This document shows positions 4,881-60,288 of a stretch of 64,000 nucleotides of DNA, piece after piece (the stretch's first letter is position 1; each line of letters begins with the position of its first letter). Source of the stretch: Pyrobaculum oguniense TE7 (GTDB taxonomy: Archaea; Thermoproteota; Thermoprotei; Thermoproteales; Thermoproteaceae); NCBI GenBank assembly GCA_000247545.1, contig CP003316.1, positions 1,397,233 through 1,461,232 on the forward strand. The letters are read 5' to 3'. Both the position numbers and the translations under genes were made by a program. The notes beneath the pieces are model-generated. The model did not search any database. It saw only the letters and a list, made by a program, of their open reading frames with translations, and was not told where the DNA came from.

Positions 4881-6761
4881 ATGGCTATAGGGCCTGAGGA
4901 TTTGGGGAAGCTCGTCCTAGTCTCGGGGCCGGAGACGGGCGGCGGGAGGATCCTCTTCACAGTCACGAGGATCAGCTTGGAGAACGACCGCTATGAGTCC
5001 AGCGTATGGACGTGCGATGGGGGTTGCAGGGCGGTGCTGCCTGGCCCGTTCGACGTCTCGGCTAAGCCGTCGCCAGACGGCTCCAGGATCGCCCTCCTTT
5101 CCAGGAGGGGCTTCGGGGAGAAGGAGAAGGGAGTTGGCCTATGGGTCGCGGAGTGGGGCGGGGAGCCGCGGTTGCTTGCTAAGTTCCTCGGCGTGTTGGA
5201 CTACGCGTGGGCCCCATCGGGAGAGGCCCTCGCAGTGGTGGCCTACGAGGGGTCTCCAGAGGCTGACGTGAAGCACGCGGAGAGGCTCCCCCTGTGGATA
5301 AACGACTTCGGCTTTGCCTACAACGTGTCTAGCCATCTCTACCTAGTCGACGCCTACAGCGGCGTCGTTGAGAAGCTGACGGAAGGGGACGTTCGGGTGC
5401 TAAAAGCGGCTTTCAGCCCAGACGGGAGGAGGGTGGCGTACGCAGTGGCCAGAGACTGGCTTAGGCCGTATCTCCAAGACGTCGTTGTTCTGGATTTAAA
5501 AAGTGGGGAGCGGGCTACCTGGGCGTCTGGCTACACGTCTGTTACTGAGATCGCTTGGCACCCCAATGGCCGGGGCTTGGCCTTCACGGGCCACCTAAGG
5601 CCGAGGGGCTTTTCCTCCCACTCCAGGGTGTGGGTAGTGGAGGAGGGGGGAGAGCCCCGTTGCCTAACCTGTAGCTTTAAATACGGCGTGGGCAACGGCG
5701 TCAACAGCGACGCGAGGGGGCCTAGCTATACAAGATCCCTGTACTGGGACGGCGGCTCAGTCCTCTTCCAAGCCACCGTAGGGGGCTCCGTCGGCGTGTA
5801 CCGCGCCTCTCTGAGCGGCGAGGTGGAGGCCGTGTTGGCCCCAAGAGGCGTCGTTGATGAGTTCGTCCCAGTAGGTAGGGACATATTGTACACATACATG
5901 GAGGCTGACAAGCCAAAGGAGCTTTACCTGTGGGACGGGTCGGAGGCGAAGAAGCTTACGCGTTTCAACGACTTCGTGCTGGAGAGGTGGCGCTTGAAGA
6001 GGCCCCAGAGGTTTGTAATGAAGGCAAGCGACGGGGCGGAGGTGGAGGGCTGGGTCCTCCTGCCGGAGGGGGCTGGGCCGCATAAGTGGGTTCTCTACAT
6101 ACACGGCGGGCCGAAGACGGCGTACGGCGAGGGGTTCATGTTCGAGTTTCACCTCCTAGCCTCGCGGGGCTACGCCGTGGTGTTCTCGAACCCCAGGGGG
6201 AGCGACGGCTACGACGAGGAGTTCGCCGACATTAGGTGCAGATACGGCGAGAGGGATTTCCAAGACTTAATGGAGGTGGCGGACTACGCGGTGAGGAACT
6301 TCCCGCTTGACCCCCAGAAGGCGGCGGTGGCGGGGGGCTCATACGGCGGGTTTATGACAAACTGGATAATCACGCGGGTGGACAAGTTCAAGGCGGCTGT
6401 GACCCAGCGCTCTATCTGCGACTGGGTCTCCATGTACGGCACGACTGACATTGGCTGGTACTTCGTGGAGGACCAGCTGTGTTGCACGCCGTGGAGGGAC
6501 AGGGAGCGTTGCATTGAGAAGAGCCCGCTGTACTACGCTGACAGGGTGAAGACTCCCACGCTCATCATACACTCCATGGAGGACTACCGGACGTGGCTCG
6601 ACCAAGGCGTGCTCTTCTTCACCGCGCTGAGGTTACACGGCGTGGAGGCGAGGCTGACTATATTCCCCGAGGAGAGCCATGAGCTCACCCGGAAGGGGAA
6701 GCCCAGGCATCGGGTGGAAAACTTTAAGGAGATCTTGAGCTGGCTTGATAAACATGTATAA
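4881..6761 (+). CDS. S9 family serine peptidase (acylaminoacyl-peptidase / prolyl oligopeptidase-like)
   Basis: 626 aa starting at ATG 4881; TTTAATAA at 4853-4860 lies ~25 nt upstream, so the longer frame from 4818 is not used. Residues ~1-370 form a beta-propeller with repeated SPDG-type blades. The C-terminal alpha/beta hydrolase domain contains the nucleophile elbow GGSYGG (Ser487), Asp568 in EDYRTW and His600 in ESHELTRKGKPRHR, a complete triad in normal S9 order. No signal peptide, so it is probably a cytoplasmic enzyme degrading small peptides or releasing blocked N-terminal residues. Its last 8 bases overlap the gatD start. Confidence 0.9.
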   Translation: MAIGPEDLGKLVLVSGPETGGGRILFTVTRISLENDRYESSVWTCDGGCRAVLPGPFDVSAKPSPDGSRIALLSRRGFGEKEKGVGLWVAEWGGEPRLLAKFLGVLDYAWAPSGEALAVVAYEGSPEADVKHAERLPLWINDFGFAYNVSSHLYLVDAYSGVVEKLTEGDVRVLKAAFSPDGRRVAYAVARDWLRPYLQDVVVLDLKSGERATWASGYTSVTEIAWHPNGRGLAFTGHLRPRGFSSHSRVWVVEEGGEPRCLTCSFKYGVGNGVNSDARGPSYTRSLYWDGGSVLFQATVGGSVGVYRASLSGEVEAVLAPRGVVDEFVPVGRDILYTYMEADKPKELYLWDGSEAKKLTRFNDFVLERWRLKRPQRFVMKASDGAEVEGWVLLPEGAGPHKWVLYIHGGPKTAYGEGFMFEFHLLASRGYAVVFSNPRGSDGYDEEFADIRCRYGERDFQDLMEVADYAVRNFPLDPQKAAVAGGSYGGFMTNWIITRVDKFKAAVTQRSICDWVSMYGTTDIGWYFVEDQLCCTPWRDRERCIEKSPLYYADRVKTPTLIIHSMEDYRTWLDQGVLFFTALRLHGVEARLTIFPEESHELTRKGKPRHRVENFKEILSWLDKHV

Positions 6762-8010
6762 ACGCGTCAGGGTAGTCCTCGACAACGGCGACGTCTTCGA
6801 GGGGGTGTTGATCTCCCCGACGCAGTTCAGCGACCCAGACATAGTAGTCCTTAAGCTGAAGAACGGCTACAACGTGGGGCTCAAAAAGGGGAGAATCAAA
6901 GAGGTGATAGAGCTCGGCGAAGTACCCGAGGCTTTTAAGGCCGAGGGGCCGAGGGGGGAGAGGGCTGGGGGCGGGAAAATCGCGCTGTTAGCAACCGGCG
7001 GCACCATCCTTTCGCGCGTCGACTACGTGACGGGTGGCGTCTACCCCACTCTCAGCGTCGACTATTTGTTCGAGATGCTGGGGGGTTTAGAGGCGGAGGT
7101 GGAGGCAGAGGAGGTGATGGCCAAGTTTAGCGAGGACATGACGCCTGCTCTCTGGGGGGTGCTGGCTGAGAGAGTAGCCGATGCGTTTAGGAGGGGGGCT
7201 AAGGGGGTTGTTGTGCTTCACGGCACAGACACCATGCACTACACAGCGGCGGCTCTAGCCTTTGCCTTTGCCAAGGCGCCGGGGCCAATCGCCCTGGTGG
7301 GCGCCCAGAGGTCGAGCGACCGCCCCTCCACAGACGCGGTGCTCAATATCAAGGCTGCTATGGCCGTGGCGGCGAGGGCGCCCTTCGCAGAGTCTGTAGT
7401 GGTTATGCATAAGACCAGCGGCGACTCCGCCATCGCCGTACATAGGGGCACGAGGGTGAGGAAGATGCACACGTCGCGCCGCGACGCTTTTCAATCAATC
7501 AACGCAACGCCAATCGCCGAGTACTACCCCGAGAAGGACCTCCTCCAGGTCAATACCAGCGAGTACAAGGAGAGGGACGGGCTGGAGTACACCTCCAAGT
7601 TCGAGGAGAGAGTGGCCCTTGTGAAGTTCTACCCGGGGATGCATCCCCGCCTCCTGGAGGCCATGCTCGACGTGGGGATAAGGGGCGTGGTGCTGGAGGG
7701 GACGGGGTTTGGTCACGTGGGGGAGTACCTCCTCCCTTCCATCAAGAAACTGGTAGACGCTGGGGTCGTCGTGGCGATGACTAGCCAGACGCTGTACGGC
7801 CGGGTCAACCTCTTCGTGTACAGGAGGGGGAGGGAGCTCTTGTCACTCGGCGTGGTGCCGCTTGAGGATATGTTGCCCGAGGCGGCCTATGCCAAGATGT
7901 CGTGGGCGCTGGCTAACTTCAAGCAGGAGGAGGTGCCTAGGGTGTTGGCTACGCCCGTTGCGTACGATATAAGCCCTCGATCCGATCCTCTGACATTCGG
8001 CGCTTTATGA
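6754..8010 (+). CDS. gatD: Glutamyl-tRNA(Gln) amidotransferase subunit D
   Basis: 418 aa from ATG 6754; an in-frame TTG at 6745 is less likely. Residues ~1-70 are the GatD N-terminal beta domain, followed by an L-asparaginase-like domain with LATGGTI, LHGTDTMHYTA and the K-containing HKTSGDSAIAVHRGTRVRKMH stretch; the threonines, Asp and Lys needed for glutamine hydrolysis are all present. With GatE it converts Glu-tRNA(Gln) to Gln-tRNA(Gln), needed in archaea that lack GlnRS. GatE is not in this window. The gene overlaps the S9 peptidase by 8 bp and the downstream HD gene by ATGA, so the three may be partly co-transcribed. Confidence 0.93.
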   Translation: MYKRVRVVLDNGDVFEGVLISPTQFSDPDIVVLKLKNGYNVGLKKGRIKEVIELGEVPEAFKAEGPRGERAGGGKIALLATGGTILSRVDYVTGGVYPTLSVDYLFEMLGGLEAEVEAEEVMAKFSEDMTPALWGVLAERVADAFRRGAKGVVVLHGTDTMHYTAAALAFAFAKAPGPIALVGAQRSSDRPSTDAVLNIKAAMAVAARAPFAESVVVMHKTSGDSAIAVHRGTRVRKMHTSRRDAFQSINATPIAEYYPEKDLLQVNTSEYKERDGLEYTSKFEERVALVKFYPGMHPRLLEAMLDVGIRGVVLEGTGFGHVGEYLLPSIKKLVDAGVVVAMTSQTLYGRVNLFVYRRGRELLSLGVVPLEDMLPEAAYAKMSWALANFKQEEVPRVLATPVAYDISPRSDPLTFGAL

Positions 8011-14151: not shown

Positions 14152-15540
14152 ATGGGTAGAAAACCAGTTCTCGGGCTGGCGGCGCTTCTGCTGGCCGTTG
14201 CGCTGATGCACGCGGCTATTCCGTACAAAGACCCATACCAATACGCAAAGGAGCACCAAACACTTTGGGGCAAGATAGGGGCTCTCGCCCACTACGACGT
14301 GGTCAAGACCACCGATCCTAGGCTCTGCTCCGACGGCCTTTCCAACTTTACCTGCTTCCTGAGCAAAACGGACGTAGCCCCCATCCTAAAGGCGCTTAAT
14401 AGAACGGGGATAAAGCCAGAGGCGGCTGAGGTAGAGGCTAAATGGGTCCTCGTCCTAGACATCAACTACACGGCGGTGCCGGCTACAAGCTACTGGCGCA
14501 ACTACACGGTAATAAAGGCGCGGGAACTCCGCTGGAACAACCAGACGGTAAGGGTTTACCAAGTGAGGATGAAGTGGTCGTATGGCGAATTGATAAAGGC
14601 TAAGGATCGTGTCTTTGAGAAATTACTGTATAAAGACAAGATCGGGGGAATAACCTCGGTAGCACCGGCCCTAGAGCGGATAGTAGTTACTACCAAAAAT
14701 GCAACTGCAGAAAGGAAGCCCGACCCCGATGCCGTGGAGAAAATTAAGAAAAAGATAAAGGAGGAATACCAGACTTTAGAAGTGGAGGTAGCGTATGCGG
14801 AATTTTACTTCGCTTCTAGATCGGGTTACTTTGATCCCCTAGAAGGTGGAATACAAATATATCTCAGTTCCTATCTTCCATCTCTGTATAGACGTGTGAA
14901 TACTTCCTGCACGCTTGGCTACACAGGTTGGTTGTATGGAACGGTACCGGTAATAGTGACGGCTTGGCACTGCAGTTACTATATTTGGGGCCAGAGTGTG
15001 TATGTATACCAACCTCTACCTCTCCTACCTAAATTCTACATAGGTTATTCATTCAGGCCGGCCGGATGTATATATAAACAGATTGATGCCAATACAATAG
15101 AGACTGATTGCGACATTATGACCATACCGGTAGAGGGGCGTAATATCTTCCCAGGAGTATATAGGCCTTCTCTAGACGCATTTGGTGGGTGGGTAATAGG
15201 CGTATATGGCAGATATGATGTTCAGTGGTTTGGTGAGTTGCATAAGGCTGGCATATCAACAGACGTAACATCTGGTCCATTGCTTTGGTATTGCACAAAT
15301 ATGAATTATCCCTTCATAGAAGGCACTCCTTACAAGGTAACTGTTAGGTGTCAGGTTGTGACTGGTATGAGCTCGGCTCCGGGTGATAGCGGGTCACCAG
15401 TTTACGTGTTAACCAGCAGTACTGCTGGTGGTACTATTAGGTTACTATATGCCTACGGCATTCTCTCGGGCACTAACTTGTTGAGAATGACAGTACTATC
15501 GCCTCTAGATGCCTACCATTTATATGTTAAATATACATAA
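14152..15540 (+). CDS. Secreted chymotrypsin-fold (S1-type) serine protease with N-terminal pro/targeting domain
   Basis: 462 aa. A signal peptide (residues ~1-22) is followed by a ~190-residue N-terminal domain containing TLWGKIGALAHYDVVKT, then a C-terminal protease domain. The triad is visible: His273 in TAWHC, Asp321 in DCDIM, Ser413 in PGDSGSP. Cysteines flank these sites as in disulfide-stabilised exported proteases. The layout resembles alpha-lytic-type enzymes with a propeptide, so autocatalytic maturation outside the cell is likely (inference). The same N-terminal domain occurs fused to a serpin relic at 58.9-60.3 kb. The stop overlaps the start of the membrane companion gene by 17 bp, so the two are co-translated. 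Confidence 0.85.
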   Translation: MGRKPVLGLAALLLAVALMHAAIPYKDPYQYAKEHQTLWGKIGALAHYDVVKTTDPRLCSDGLSNFTCFLSKTDVAPILKALNRTGIKPEAAEVEAKWVLVLDINYTAVPATSYWRNYTVIKARELRWNNQTVRVYQVRMKWSYGELIKAKDRVFEKLLYKDKIGGITSVAPALERIVVTTKNATAERKPDPDAVEKIKKKIKEEYQTLEVEVAYAEFYFASRSGYFDPLEGGIQIYLSSYLPSLYRRVNTSCTLGYTGWLYGTVPVIVTAWHCSYYIWGQSVYVYQPLPLLPKFYIGYSFRPAGCIYKQIDANTIETDCDIMTIPVEGRNIFPGVYRPSLDAFGGWVIGVYGRYDVQWFGELHKAGISTDVTSGPLLWYCTNMNYPFIEGTPYKVTVRCQVVTGMSSAPGDSGSPVYVLTSSTAGGTIRLLYAYGILSGTNLLRMTVLSPLDAYHLYVKYT

Positions 15541-16333
15541 AATTTTATTTTATGTTTTTTTCTCATTATTTTTCTTATTTGTTGTTATTCCACTTTTTCT
15601 TACATTGATTTATTTGATATGCAATTTTGGCTGGGAGCCTCCTCACCCGCCCCGATGTCAGCAAGTTGGATTGGTAGCACAGGCGCTTTTCTTCGTTCCC
15701 TTCTCTGTGATGCTCCACATATCCGAAGCCCTCTGCCATTTGTGGGAGCCTGTGGATTACGCCCTTTCGCCGAAGTGCGGGTATGCGGGTGTCGCAACTG
15801 AGGTTAACGCCGCGGGCTTCGTCTACGGGCCGTGTCAATACGAGCTTCAGATGTCTAGCTGCGCGGTTGACCGCGTCACTAAGCTGGGAAACGTCGTGGG
15901 GAGTGTCTGCGTGGCGAGTGATGGGAGATATGCAGTATTCCTAGCCCAAGTCGCGCTCGACACACGCGTCTGCGGCTTCAGGCCGCTGATGTTGTTGATT
16001 GAGCATATACTCGTCGTGGTGGATATGCGGACGGGTGAGGCTGCTTGGACCAACTTCTTGTTGCTAAACGCCACCACTCTAGAGCCATACTGGGCGAGCC
16101 CAAGCGGCGCCGTTGTGAGCCCTTGGGAAAACCCAGCCGCGATTAGCCAATTCGTGGTGTTCGGAAAAGACGGGGTCTATCTGAGAAACGCCACAGGCCC
16201 ATACGTCCTCGTGATACGCAGAGAGTTCAGAACAGCCAAGGCAAACATCGCCCCCACCACGCCCACCCCACCCACGCCTATAGAAAACGCAACCGGAGTA
16301 TTCATAAAAATCCCAGCCCCCAGCGGGAAATGA
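15524..16333 (+). CDS. Membrane-anchored companion of the S1 protease, copy 1
   Basis: 269 aa from ATG 15524, overlapping the protease stop. One very hydrophobic helix (residues ~4-32) and a possible second (~45-65) anchor a soluble domain marked by GFVYGPCQY, CVASDGRYAVF, VVVDMRTGEA and VVFGKDGVYLRN, ending in a Pro/Thr-rich linker and a last beta strand. The same domain recurs in the gene at 16829, so protease and companion were duplicated as a unit. No database family comes to mind. A role as anchor, chaperone or regulator of the protease is inference from co-translation and co-duplication. Confidence 0.75.
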   Translation: MLNIHKILFYVFFSLFFLFVVIPLFLTLIYLICNFGWEPPHPPRCQQVGLVAQALFFVPFSVMLHISEALCHLWEPVDYALSPKCGYAGVATEVNAAGFVYGPCQYELQMSSCAVDRVTKLGNVVGSVCVASDGRYAVFLAQVALDTRVCGFRPLMLLIEHILVVVDMRTGEAAWTNFLLLNATTLEPYWASPSGAVVSPWENPAAISQFVVFGKDGVYLRNATGPYVLVIRREFRTAKANIAPTTPTPPTPIENATGVFIKIPAPSGK

Positions 16334-16845
16334 GGAGTTTATTCTTTGAATATTGCTGTTTTACTAGCTCAGCCGGTTGCACTATGGAAGCCTATTGCGA
16401 CATCATGGCTATGACTGTTGATACTAGACAGCGTACCATCGCTCCGCAGGTTTTCAGACCTTACTACGACGTTGACTGGGGGACGGTGATGAAGGTGCTG
16501 GGGAGATTCGACGTCCCCTTGTGGGGCAGATTAACCAAAGCTGGTATTACGACAGATGTACAAGAAGGAGAGTTGCTGAATTATTGTAGCGACGTCACCT
16601 ACAGGTATAGTGGCAATACAATAACTGTTAAGTGCGCATTTGAGATCCGTATGGTTAATTTACCAGGCGATAGTGGCGGGCCCATCTACGTTGTGGGGCC
16701 TAGCATAGGGCTGAGCTCCATTGAGGTGTATGCGTATGGGATAACCTCGGGCTATCGCTACCTTAACCTCAGTGGGTATATAATACCGCTTACTACTATA
16801 GCATCGCCGCTTGATGCGTACCACCTCTATGTCCAGTACACTTAA
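16330..16845 (+). pseudogene. C-terminal half of an S1 protease, copy 2, lacking the catalytic His
   Basis: 171 codons, joined to the previous gene by ATGA. The product matches the C-terminal half of the protease at 14152: it has YCDIMAM (Asp) and PGDSGGP (Ser) and the shared end SPLDAYHLYV, but everything before the Asp, including signal peptide, N-terminal domain and TAWHC, is missing. It cannot be an active exported protease as written. The most economical reading is a tandem duplication of the two-gene module followed by a deletion that fused companion 1 to the middle of protease 2. It may still be translated. Confidence 0.8.
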
Positions 16846-17461
16846 GCCCTTTTTTCCCCTCATTTTAGTTGTCGGCTTTCTATTCGTTGGCTTGTTCTTT
16901 ATTCAGCACTTTTTTGAGATTTTGCTCTTCTTAGACGAGTTGAGGATCCGCTTAGGCCTTGCCAAGTTGCCCCCTCCGTGTCCAGTTGGGGAGTTGGTCA
17001 ACGCCTCTGGCTACGTCTACGGTCCTTGCCAGTACGACGGCCCCTTTAAGCCCAGCGGGGCGATGTGCAACAGCTCGATGGTTATAATTGGCGGACAAGT
17101 TTTGAGTTGCATTGCAAGCGATGGGAGATATGCAGTATTTAAGGCGCGACTCTCCTACAATGACTGTTGGCCGCCTGGGAACCGACTTGCGAAAACGTGT
17201 CTCGCAGTCCTCGCCTCCAGCGAATACGTGGTATTTGTCGACTTGAGAAGCGGCGAGGCTGTGGCTACGCCCTTGTCGATAAGCGAAGCAATTAGCGAAA
17301 AAGACGTGGTTTTCGGCAAAGACGGGGTGTACTTAAGAGGCGACCGCCCGCGGGATTTCGTATCGCTCCGCGTCGAGCTAGACCCCACAAAGCTGAGGAT
17401 CGGCCAGCCGGTAGAGCTAGTAAACAAGACAATGATAAAGGTTATTCCAGCAGGGTCTTAG
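16829..17461 (+). CDS. Membrane-anchored companion of the S1 protease, copy 2
   Basis: 210 aa from ATG 16829, overlapping the truncated protease by 17 bp exactly as copy 1 overlaps the intact protease. One N-terminal membrane helix (residues ~10-32) then a domain sharing GYVYGPCQY, CIASDGRYAVF, VVFVDLRSGEA and VVFGKDGVYLRG with copy 1. A stretch of >20 bases around SDGRYAV is identical at DNA level between the copies (15916 and 17116), pointing to recent duplication or gene conversion. Function unknown. Confidence 0.75.
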   Translation: MSSTLKPFFPLILVVGFLFVGLFFIQHFFEILLFLDELRIRLGLAKLPPPCPVGELVNASGYVYGPCQYDGPFKPSGAMCNSSMVIIGGQVLSCIASDGRYAVFKARLSYNDCWPPGNRLAKTCLAVLASSEYVVFVDLRSGEAVATPLSISEAISEKDVVFGKDGVYLRGDRPRDFVSLRVELDPTKLRIGQPVELVNKTMIKVIPAGS

Positions 17462-58881: not shown

Positions 58882-60288
58882 TCAGGGCCGCCCTTCTCGA
58901 AGCCGGCGTGGGCTCCCTCTACGAGCCCGGATACCCTGGCCCACCACGTATAACGCCACGTCTGAGTTGTTGAAGGGGAGCTCCACCACTGTCAAGTCGT
59001 CGGAGATAAACCCTCTAAGAGATGGGTCTGCGCACGAGGTGAGGCTCAGTCTCATTAATTCCACGGGGCCGGCGCATTTGAACTCCCTCTTGTCCACCCT
59101 CATAGACCTCTCAGGCCACCACGTCCCGTGGAAGAAGACCGCGGAGATCAAAACCGCGCGGACGCCCTCCCCCCTAGGGTAGTCCTCGGGGACCAGATCC
59201 CGCACCAAGCCCCGGGGTTCTCTCCGAAACCCATTTATTAACCTCCTGCAATGCCGACTTGTAGCCCCCGCGAAGTCAGCCCACTTAGCCTCGGCGCCTA
59301 TGCAACTCAGCCTCAGGAGATAGCTCTCCTTAAAGGGAAATCCCCTCTGGAGCCACGCCGACGCCGCGTCCTCCAGCCAGCGGCCCGCGGAGGGGAGGAG
59401 ACACAGTTCGTCCGCAAAGCTGAAGGTCCGCCTTATCTCCCCCTTCGTGGTCCCCGAAGTGCCGGCGTAGGCCATGGCAAAGGCCTTGTACACGGAGTAG
59501 GGCGACAGCGCTATGTTCTCGCCCAGCCTGCCCAGCGCAGCCCTCTTGTAGAGCTCAACGGCGAAGCGGCCGTAGGCGTCGAGAGCCAAGCCGGACCCCG
59601 TGATCGGCAGGGGCGACGGGGCCTAAGGCCCCTCAGCCACGGGCTCAGGCGATACGCCAGGCACGACCACCACGTCGACCCCAGGGTCTATCCTCTTCAC
59701 CGCTTGGACTATCCTTTAGACCTCCTCGCCGGATGGACTGCCTCTGATGTACACCACTAGCTGATCCAAGCCGGCGGCCACGCCGGAGGCGCCCTCTCCC
59801 ATCAAGGCCTTAAGGGACTTTTCGCCTATCCTCAGCAACTCGCCGTAGGATCTCTTCAGCGGGACTTGGTAGATCCTGGCAGTCTGGTTGTTCCACCTCA
59901 GCTCCCACGCGCCCAAGACGGTGAAGTTCCGCCAGTAGAAGCCCACCGCCGTGTGGTTCACGTCCAAAGCCAACACCCACTTGGCCTCCACGGGGGCTAC
60001 CTCGGGCTTCACGCCGATTTTGCCCAAGGCCTCTAGGATCGGCGTTGCGTCCGTCTTGCTCAAGAAGCAGGTGAAGTTGGCGAAGCCGTCGGAGCAGAGC
60101 CTTGGCTCCGTGGTCTTAACCACGTCGTAGTAGGCGAGGGCCCCTATTTTGCCCCATAGTGTCTCAGCCCGCAACGCCTCCTCCGGCACCGGGCTGGGGG
60201 GACTCCCCGTTGCTAGAAAATACGCCACGGCCAGCGCCAATGCAACGGCCAAGGCGAGCAGAAGGGCCCTGGCCAAGTTCCTGCCCAT
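58882..60288 (-). pseudogene. Exported N-terminal domain - Pro linker - serpin, with two in-frame stops and lost reactive loop
   Basis: One minus-strand frame from ATG 60288 to 58882. Residues 1-~190: signal/anchor helix and the domain TLWGKIGALAYYDVVKT...LCSDGFANFTCFLSKTD, closely matching the N-terminal domain of the S1 protease at 14152. After TAA (59718-59716) the frame continues RIVQAVKRIDPGVDVVVVPG, a Pro-rich linker (VSPEPVAEGP, TAG at 59625-59623, APSPLPITG), then a serpin: NIALSPYSVYKAFAMAYAG, VRAVLISAVFFHGTWWPE, VVELPFNNSDVALYVV. The C-terminal half with the reactive-centre loop is absent. P. aerophilum encodes an intact serpin (aeropin). The same-frame continuity argues that the ancestor was a single fusion protein. 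Confidence 0.8.

What the first reader, a model, noticed from the sequence alone, without database searches (positions are those of the whole stretch)
58882..60288. A protease-type N-terminal domain fused in frame to a serpin
The minus-strand frame from 60288 to 58882 is continuous apart from TAA (59716) and TAG (59623). It reads signal peptide, the same N-terminal domain as the S1 protease at 14152, a Pro-rich linker, then a serpin. All sense codons around both stops stay in one register, so the ancestor was probably one exported fusion. A shared N-terminal domain on a chymotrypsin-fold protease and on an inhibitor of such proteases suggests an archaeal protease/inhibitor pair targeted to the same place. 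I know of no description of this architecture.
Basis: partly seen in the sequence, partly recalled or inferred. Interest (0 to 1): 0.85.

Follow-up and report, generated by a model that had tools for sequence, protein, structure and literature searches.

The report
Broken domain-serpin fusion in Pyrobaculum
A heat-loving archaeon carries the wreck of a gene that once joined a membrane-anchored domain, otherwise found on a protein-cutting enzyme, to a protease inhibitor (serpin); a related species keeps the same layout with a complete inhibitor but a reading-frame break at the joint, which suggests that the published inhibitor 'aeropin' descends from, or is part of, a larger exported protein.

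Summary
The genome is Pyrobaculum oguniense TE7. Reading 60288->58942 (-), one frame gives a membrane anchor, an N-terminal domain (NTD; 58% identical to the NTD of the S1-like protease at 14152), a Pro-rich linker and a serpin. No other serpin exists in the genome. Six other Pyrobaculum-genus serpins have anchor + linker + serpin and no NTD. I found no uninterrupted NTD-serpin. A fusion in the common ancestor of the two species is the best reading, with weak tree support. The 'protease/inhibitor pair' idea is only partly supported: the NTD is shared, but serpins also occur in genomes without the NTD-protease, and the NTD has no recognisable fold match.

The parts
60205..60288 (-). Signal peptide / membrane anchor (residues 1-28, ARALLLALAVALALAVAYFLA) of the fusion pseudogene
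   Evidence: Direct reading of the translation
59653..60171 (-). N-terminal domain (NTD), interrupted by the TAA; homologous to the NTD of the protease at 14152
   Evidence: 58% identity E=1e-58; profile match through the TAA; AlphaFold2 model of the protease copy pLDDT 91.7, the serpin copy in its alignment
59716..59718 (-). TAA stop inside conserved NTD sequence (GEEV*RIVQAVKRIDP, aligned to G027 GEAHRILEAVRRIDP)
59590..59652 (-). Pro-rich linker (GVSPEPVAEGP*APSPLPITGSG), alignable with the linker of G027
59623..59625 (-). TAG stop inside the linker
58942..59589 (-). N-terminal ~60% of a serpin (PF00079 positions 3-225 of 370); reactive-centre loop and C-terminal part absent
59210..59270 (-). 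Out-of-frame stretch between two compensating frameshifts in the serpin
58882..58941 (-). Tail of the open frame with no similarity to serpins (after the truncation point)
14152..15540 (+). Intact NTD + S1-like serine protease (TAWHC, conserved Asp, GDSGSP), 462 aa; carries the shared NTD (about 14221-14805)
15509..16333 (+). Companion gene that follows the NTD-protease; companion genes lie next to most NTD loci but at neither NTD-serpin locus

Best explanation
The window holds a recent pseudogene of an exported fusion protein: signal anchor, NTD, Pro-rich linker, serpin. A gene of this layout probably arose once, in the common ancestor of P. oguniense and P. aerophilum, when recombination put a serpin where the catalytic domain of a duplicated NTD-S1-protease gene had been (equivalently, the short anchor of a Pyrobaculum serpin was replaced by anchor+NTD). 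The working protein would have held a covalent suicide inhibitor (serpin) on the outside of the cell at the place where the NTD-protease is held. In P. oguniense it has been destroyed by two stops, two compensating frameshifts and loss of the reactive-loop half. In P. aerophilum the serpin (aeropin) is complete, but the linker carries one frameshift. Shown: domain homology, order, register, lesions, and the same order in a second species. Inferred: single origin, export, former inhibition of an external serine protease, co-location through the NTD.
For: Same frame NTD-linker-serpin, with NTD homology continuing past the TAA. G027 (2,222,430 bp) has NTD and serpin adjacent on one strand; NTD frame reads ...VLVVPIAAPPEPA and serpin frame ...LPIPLSPEGYGRFAVE. 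Both NTDs group with the 14152/L010 protease NTDs, and the two NTD-serpin NTDs are sisters in the best tree, weakly (52/65); serpin data do not reject sisterhood (p-AU 0.41). dN/dS about 0.25 in the NTD and 0.1-0.3 in the serpin (NG86, several dS values saturated), so both parts were long under constraint. The paper on P. oguniense names P. aerophilum as the next closest member after P. arsenaticum. The other six serpins of the genus carry their own anchor and linker, whereas the G027 serpin frame has none of its own.
Against: No uninterrupted NTD-serpin was found in any genome searched. Tree support for a single origin is weak. Gene neighbourhoods of the two loci are not syntenic. The G027 NTD is fast-evolving (branch 1.3 against 0.47) and has lost conserved residues, so it may no longer matter there. 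Targeting by the NTD is untested, and its fold has no confident match.
Confidence: 0.68

Rival explanations
1. Two adjacent genes: an NTD gene and a serpin gene that lie head to tail and are translationally coupled (overlapping in P. aerophilum), never one polypeptide; the open register in the window is coincidence.
For: In G027 the NTD frame runs on for about 50 codons out of frame inside the serpin gene, and the serpin frame has a possible TTG start in the linker. A stand-alone NTD gene exists in G040.
Against: In the window NTD, linker and serpin share one frame, and the linker is alignable with G027 on both sides of the frameshift. A separate serpin would lack the anchor that all six other Pyrobaculum-genus serpins have. 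In the window no start codon with a signal sequence precedes the serpin.
Confidence: 0.17
2. Independent, accidental chimeras: recombination in decaying regions placed an NTD fragment next to a serpin twice, and no fused protein ever worked.
For: The NTD family is recombination-prone: a 351-nt, 99% identical second NTD piece lies 4.5 kb away, and truncated NTD genes are common. The two loci are not syntenic.
Against: Both fusions join at the same place (end of NTD, Pro-rich linker, start of serpin) and dN/dS in NTD and serpin is well below 1.
Confidence: 0.1
3. The interruptions are bypassed (programmed frameshift in P. aerophilum, stop readthrough in P. oguniense), so the gene is alive.
For: In G027 the break lies in the linker, in a C-rich stretch (CCCATTGCGGCCCCTCCC), where a +1 shift would restore the fusion; a sequencing error there is equally possible.
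Against: The window copy lacks the reactive loop and has two different stops plus frameshifts, so recoding could not give a working inhibitor there. No known recoding signal was tested.
Confidence: 0.05

Closest known systems
Aeropin (serpin of Pyrobaculum aerophilum; Cabrita et al. 2007, cited in PMC5297747 and PMC8233489)
   Different: Not described as NTD-fused in the papers I could read; in the genome the NTD and serpin are in different frames. The 2007 paper itself was not available.
Pnserpin of P. neutrophilum (PMC5297747)
   Same: Same serpin clade; shown to inhibit chymotrypsin-like proteases, including PnCHT of its own species.
NTD-S1 protease family of Pyrobaculum (window 14152, L010, L011, L017, L022, L025)
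   Same: Same NTD (about 41-58% identity), same kind of anchor.
   Different: C-terminal part is a serine protease rather than an inhibitor; usually followed by a companion gene that the serpin loci lack.
Kunitz-serpin fusion (L033, G335, same phylum)
   Same: Exported archaeal serpin with an extra N-terminal domain.
   Different: Extra domain is a Kunitz/BPTI inhibitor (PF00014, 45 bits), unrelated to this NTD.

Membership tests
Serpin (PF00079) | Profile match over the curated cut-off | tested here: met
   77.6 bits, cut-off 27
Serpin (PF00079) | Complete fold with hinge and reactive-centre loop | tested here: not met
   Window stops at profile position 225/370 and no other serpin piece is in the genome; present in G027 (hinge GVVAAAATAVV)
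Serpin (PF00079) | Covalent inhibition of a serine protease | not testable with these tools
   Shown in the literature for Pnserpin (PMC5297747)
NTD family of Pyrobaculum S1-like proteases | Sequence homology along the whole domain | tested here: met
S1 (chymotrypsin-fold) peptidase, for the 14152 protein | His/Asp/Ser motifs conserved | tested here: met
   TAWHC and GDSG invariant in six proteins; Asp region conserved
S1 (chymotrypsin-fold) peptidase, for the 14152 protein | Profile or fold match | tested here: inconclusive
   Trypsin 13.2 bits, under cut-off 20.6; family best E 6e-4 (Trypsin) and 1.3e-4 (Trypsin_2); catalytic part not modelled, pLDDT about 30
Alpha-lytic-protease-type pro-domain, for the NTD | Fold match to known protease pro-domains | tested here: not met
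   No hit with E<=0.001 and no pro-domain among the 50 best; best partial matches are generic alpha/beta folds (KH domain, MamM C-terminal domain); no Pfam/NCBIfam match

The most novel reading that the evidence does not exclude
The NTD is a protease-docking (pro-domain-like) module, and its transfer onto a serpin made a guided suicide inhibitor of the same species' NTD-S1 protease. Aeropin would then be only half of the native protein, the other half being what chooses its target.
Probability: 0.15. Interest if true: 0.72.

Novelty: new variant of a known kind. Interest (0 to 1): 0.5.

Why it matters
The cellular roles and native targets of archaeal serpins are largely unknown. If the P. aerophilum serpin is really the C-terminal half of an exported NTD-serpin, its published study dealt with a fragment, and the NTD becomes a handle for finding its location and target. 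A domain shared between a protease and a protease inhibitor, apparently by swapping the C-terminal half, would be a neat case of how an inhibitor can be recruited to its site of action.

Tried and rejected
Readthrough as a living gene: rejected for the window, since the reactive-loop half is missing and a frameshift pair is present. NTD as a known pro-domain: no family or fold match. Structure of the catalytic part: the model failed (pLDDT about 30), so the S1 assignment rests on motifs and weak profile hits. Synteny of the two NTD-serpin loci: none. Further NTD-serpins in named genome contigs and viral contigs: none. PDB sequence searches with the protease and its catalytic-domain alignment: only insignificant hits.

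Full report
OBSERVATION. The minus-strand frame 60288-58882 reads through to the serpin with only TAA 59716 and TAG 59623. The genome has a 2,436,033 bp chromosome, the size reported for Pyrobaculum oguniense TE7 (PMC3558965). The first 190 codons are homologous to the NTD of the protease at 14152 (58%, E=1e-58; 77% DNA identity over 219 nt). A profile of nine NTDs matches through the TAA (profile positions 3-215), so the TAA sits inside formerly coding NTD sequence. The serpin part reaches 77.6 bits against PF00079 but covers only positions 3-225 of 370. It is the only serpin match in the genome.

THE WINDOW COPY IS DEAD. Besides the two stops there is a compensating frameshift pair: between about 59270 and 59210 the serpin sequence (GGYKSALQEVNKWVSERTPGL) is in another frame. 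Homology to the G027 serpin ends at 58942, so about 145 residues with the hinge and reactive-centre loop are missing. Sixteen of 78 positions that are identical in the seven other Pyrobaculum-genus serpins differ here, against 0-6 in six of those seven; the seventh, L006, has 17 of 79, so this count alone proves nothing.

THE SAME LAYOUT IN A SECOND SPECIES. Among 45 genomes of the order, eight have a serpin and seven an NTD by sequence search. The NTD frame reads ...EAVRRIDPEVNVLVVPIAAPPEPA... and the serpin frame ...SQLPIPLSPEGYGRFAVE..., one frame apart, the switch falling in the Pro-rich linker. The linker aligns with the window's on both sides of the switch. The six other serpins are open frames of 398-424 aa with their own membrane anchor and a short, often Pro-rich linker but no NTD. 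The NTD therefore replaces the usual anchor in just these two lineages. I found no uninterrupted fusion: not in 398 genomes of the phylum, one scan of named genome contigs, or viral contigs.

ORIGIN. NTDs of the two NTD-serpins and of the 14152/L010 proteases group together (67/96), and the two NTD-serpin NTDs are sisters in the best tree (52/65): compatible with one origin, not proof. Serpin trees do not resolve the point (p-AU 0.41 for sisterhood). P. aerophilum is named as the next closest member to P. oguniense after P. arsenaticum. Both parts of the fusion show dN/dS well below 1 (NTD about 0.25; serpin 0.1-0.3), with dS saturated in several comparisons, so the sequences were under constraint for most of their separate history and the decay in the window is fairly recent (inference). 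Neighbouring genes are not shared between the two loci.

WHAT THE NTD IS. AlphaFold2 gives a confident model for the protease's NTD (pLDDT 91.7, pTM 0.85): two alpha/beta parts. Foldseek finds no significant full-length match in the PDB; the C-terminal part resembles generic KH-like or MamM-like alpha/beta folds. No Pfam or NCBIfam model matches. It occurs only in Pyrobaculum-genus genomes and one genome of a neighbouring genus. Its usual partner is an S1-like protease with TAWHC, a conserved Asp region and GDSG, for which profile evidence is weak but consistent. A companion membrane protein gene follows or lies near most NTD loci, including truncated ones, but neither NTD-serpin locus.

HOW IT PROBABLY WORKED. 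Inference: an exported, anchored suicide inhibitor whose NTD put it where the NTD-protease acts. [quoted passage not shown] That species' genome (G031 by size) has no NTD-protease but has an HtrA-like gene, so the ancestral serpin target need not be the NTD-protease. A dedicated protease/inhibitor pair is therefore a possibility specific to the two fused lineages, not a general rule.

VERDICT. The finding is real and, in a corrected form, worth a specialist's attention: not because of the window pseudogene itself but because it points at the aeropin locus. It is a new domain combination of a known inhibitor family, not a new kind of system.

Noticed in passing
L033 (G335 C13:35947-37038), serpin frame of 535 aa: An archaeal serpin of the same phylum with an N-terminal Kunitz/BPTI domain over Pfam's cut-off (45.1 bits): two unrelated protease inhibitors in one apparently exported polypeptide.
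   Followed up: partly
L030, L031, L035: Other archaeal serpins with about 200-350 residue N-terminal extensions; two of the extensions were scanned and have no Pfam family over its cut-off.
   Followed up: partly
just beyond the window: G000:C1:1461623-1461973 (L016): A 351-nt, 99.1% identical second copy of the first ~117 codons of the NTD-serpin gene, same strand, about 4.5 kb away, with unrelated flanks: a very recent partial duplication.
   Followed up: partly
window 15509-17458 (+): After the NTD-protease: companion gene (15509-16333), a C-terminal protease remnant (16330-16845) and a second companion-like stretch (16871-17458, 32% identical to the first): looks like a decayed tandem duplication of a protease/companion unit.
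   Followed up: partly
L024 (Pyrobaculum sp. WP30) 4932-7368: An NTD-protease gene cut off right after the NTD; the next frame (5764-7368) reads like a TnpB-type transposase (by eye, not searched), suggesting a mobile-element insertion.
   Followed up: no
L014 (G040 C1:9233-9883): A stand-alone NTD gene without protease domain, followed by the companion gene, in a neighbouring genus: the NTD may have a role of its own together with the companion.
   Followed up: partly
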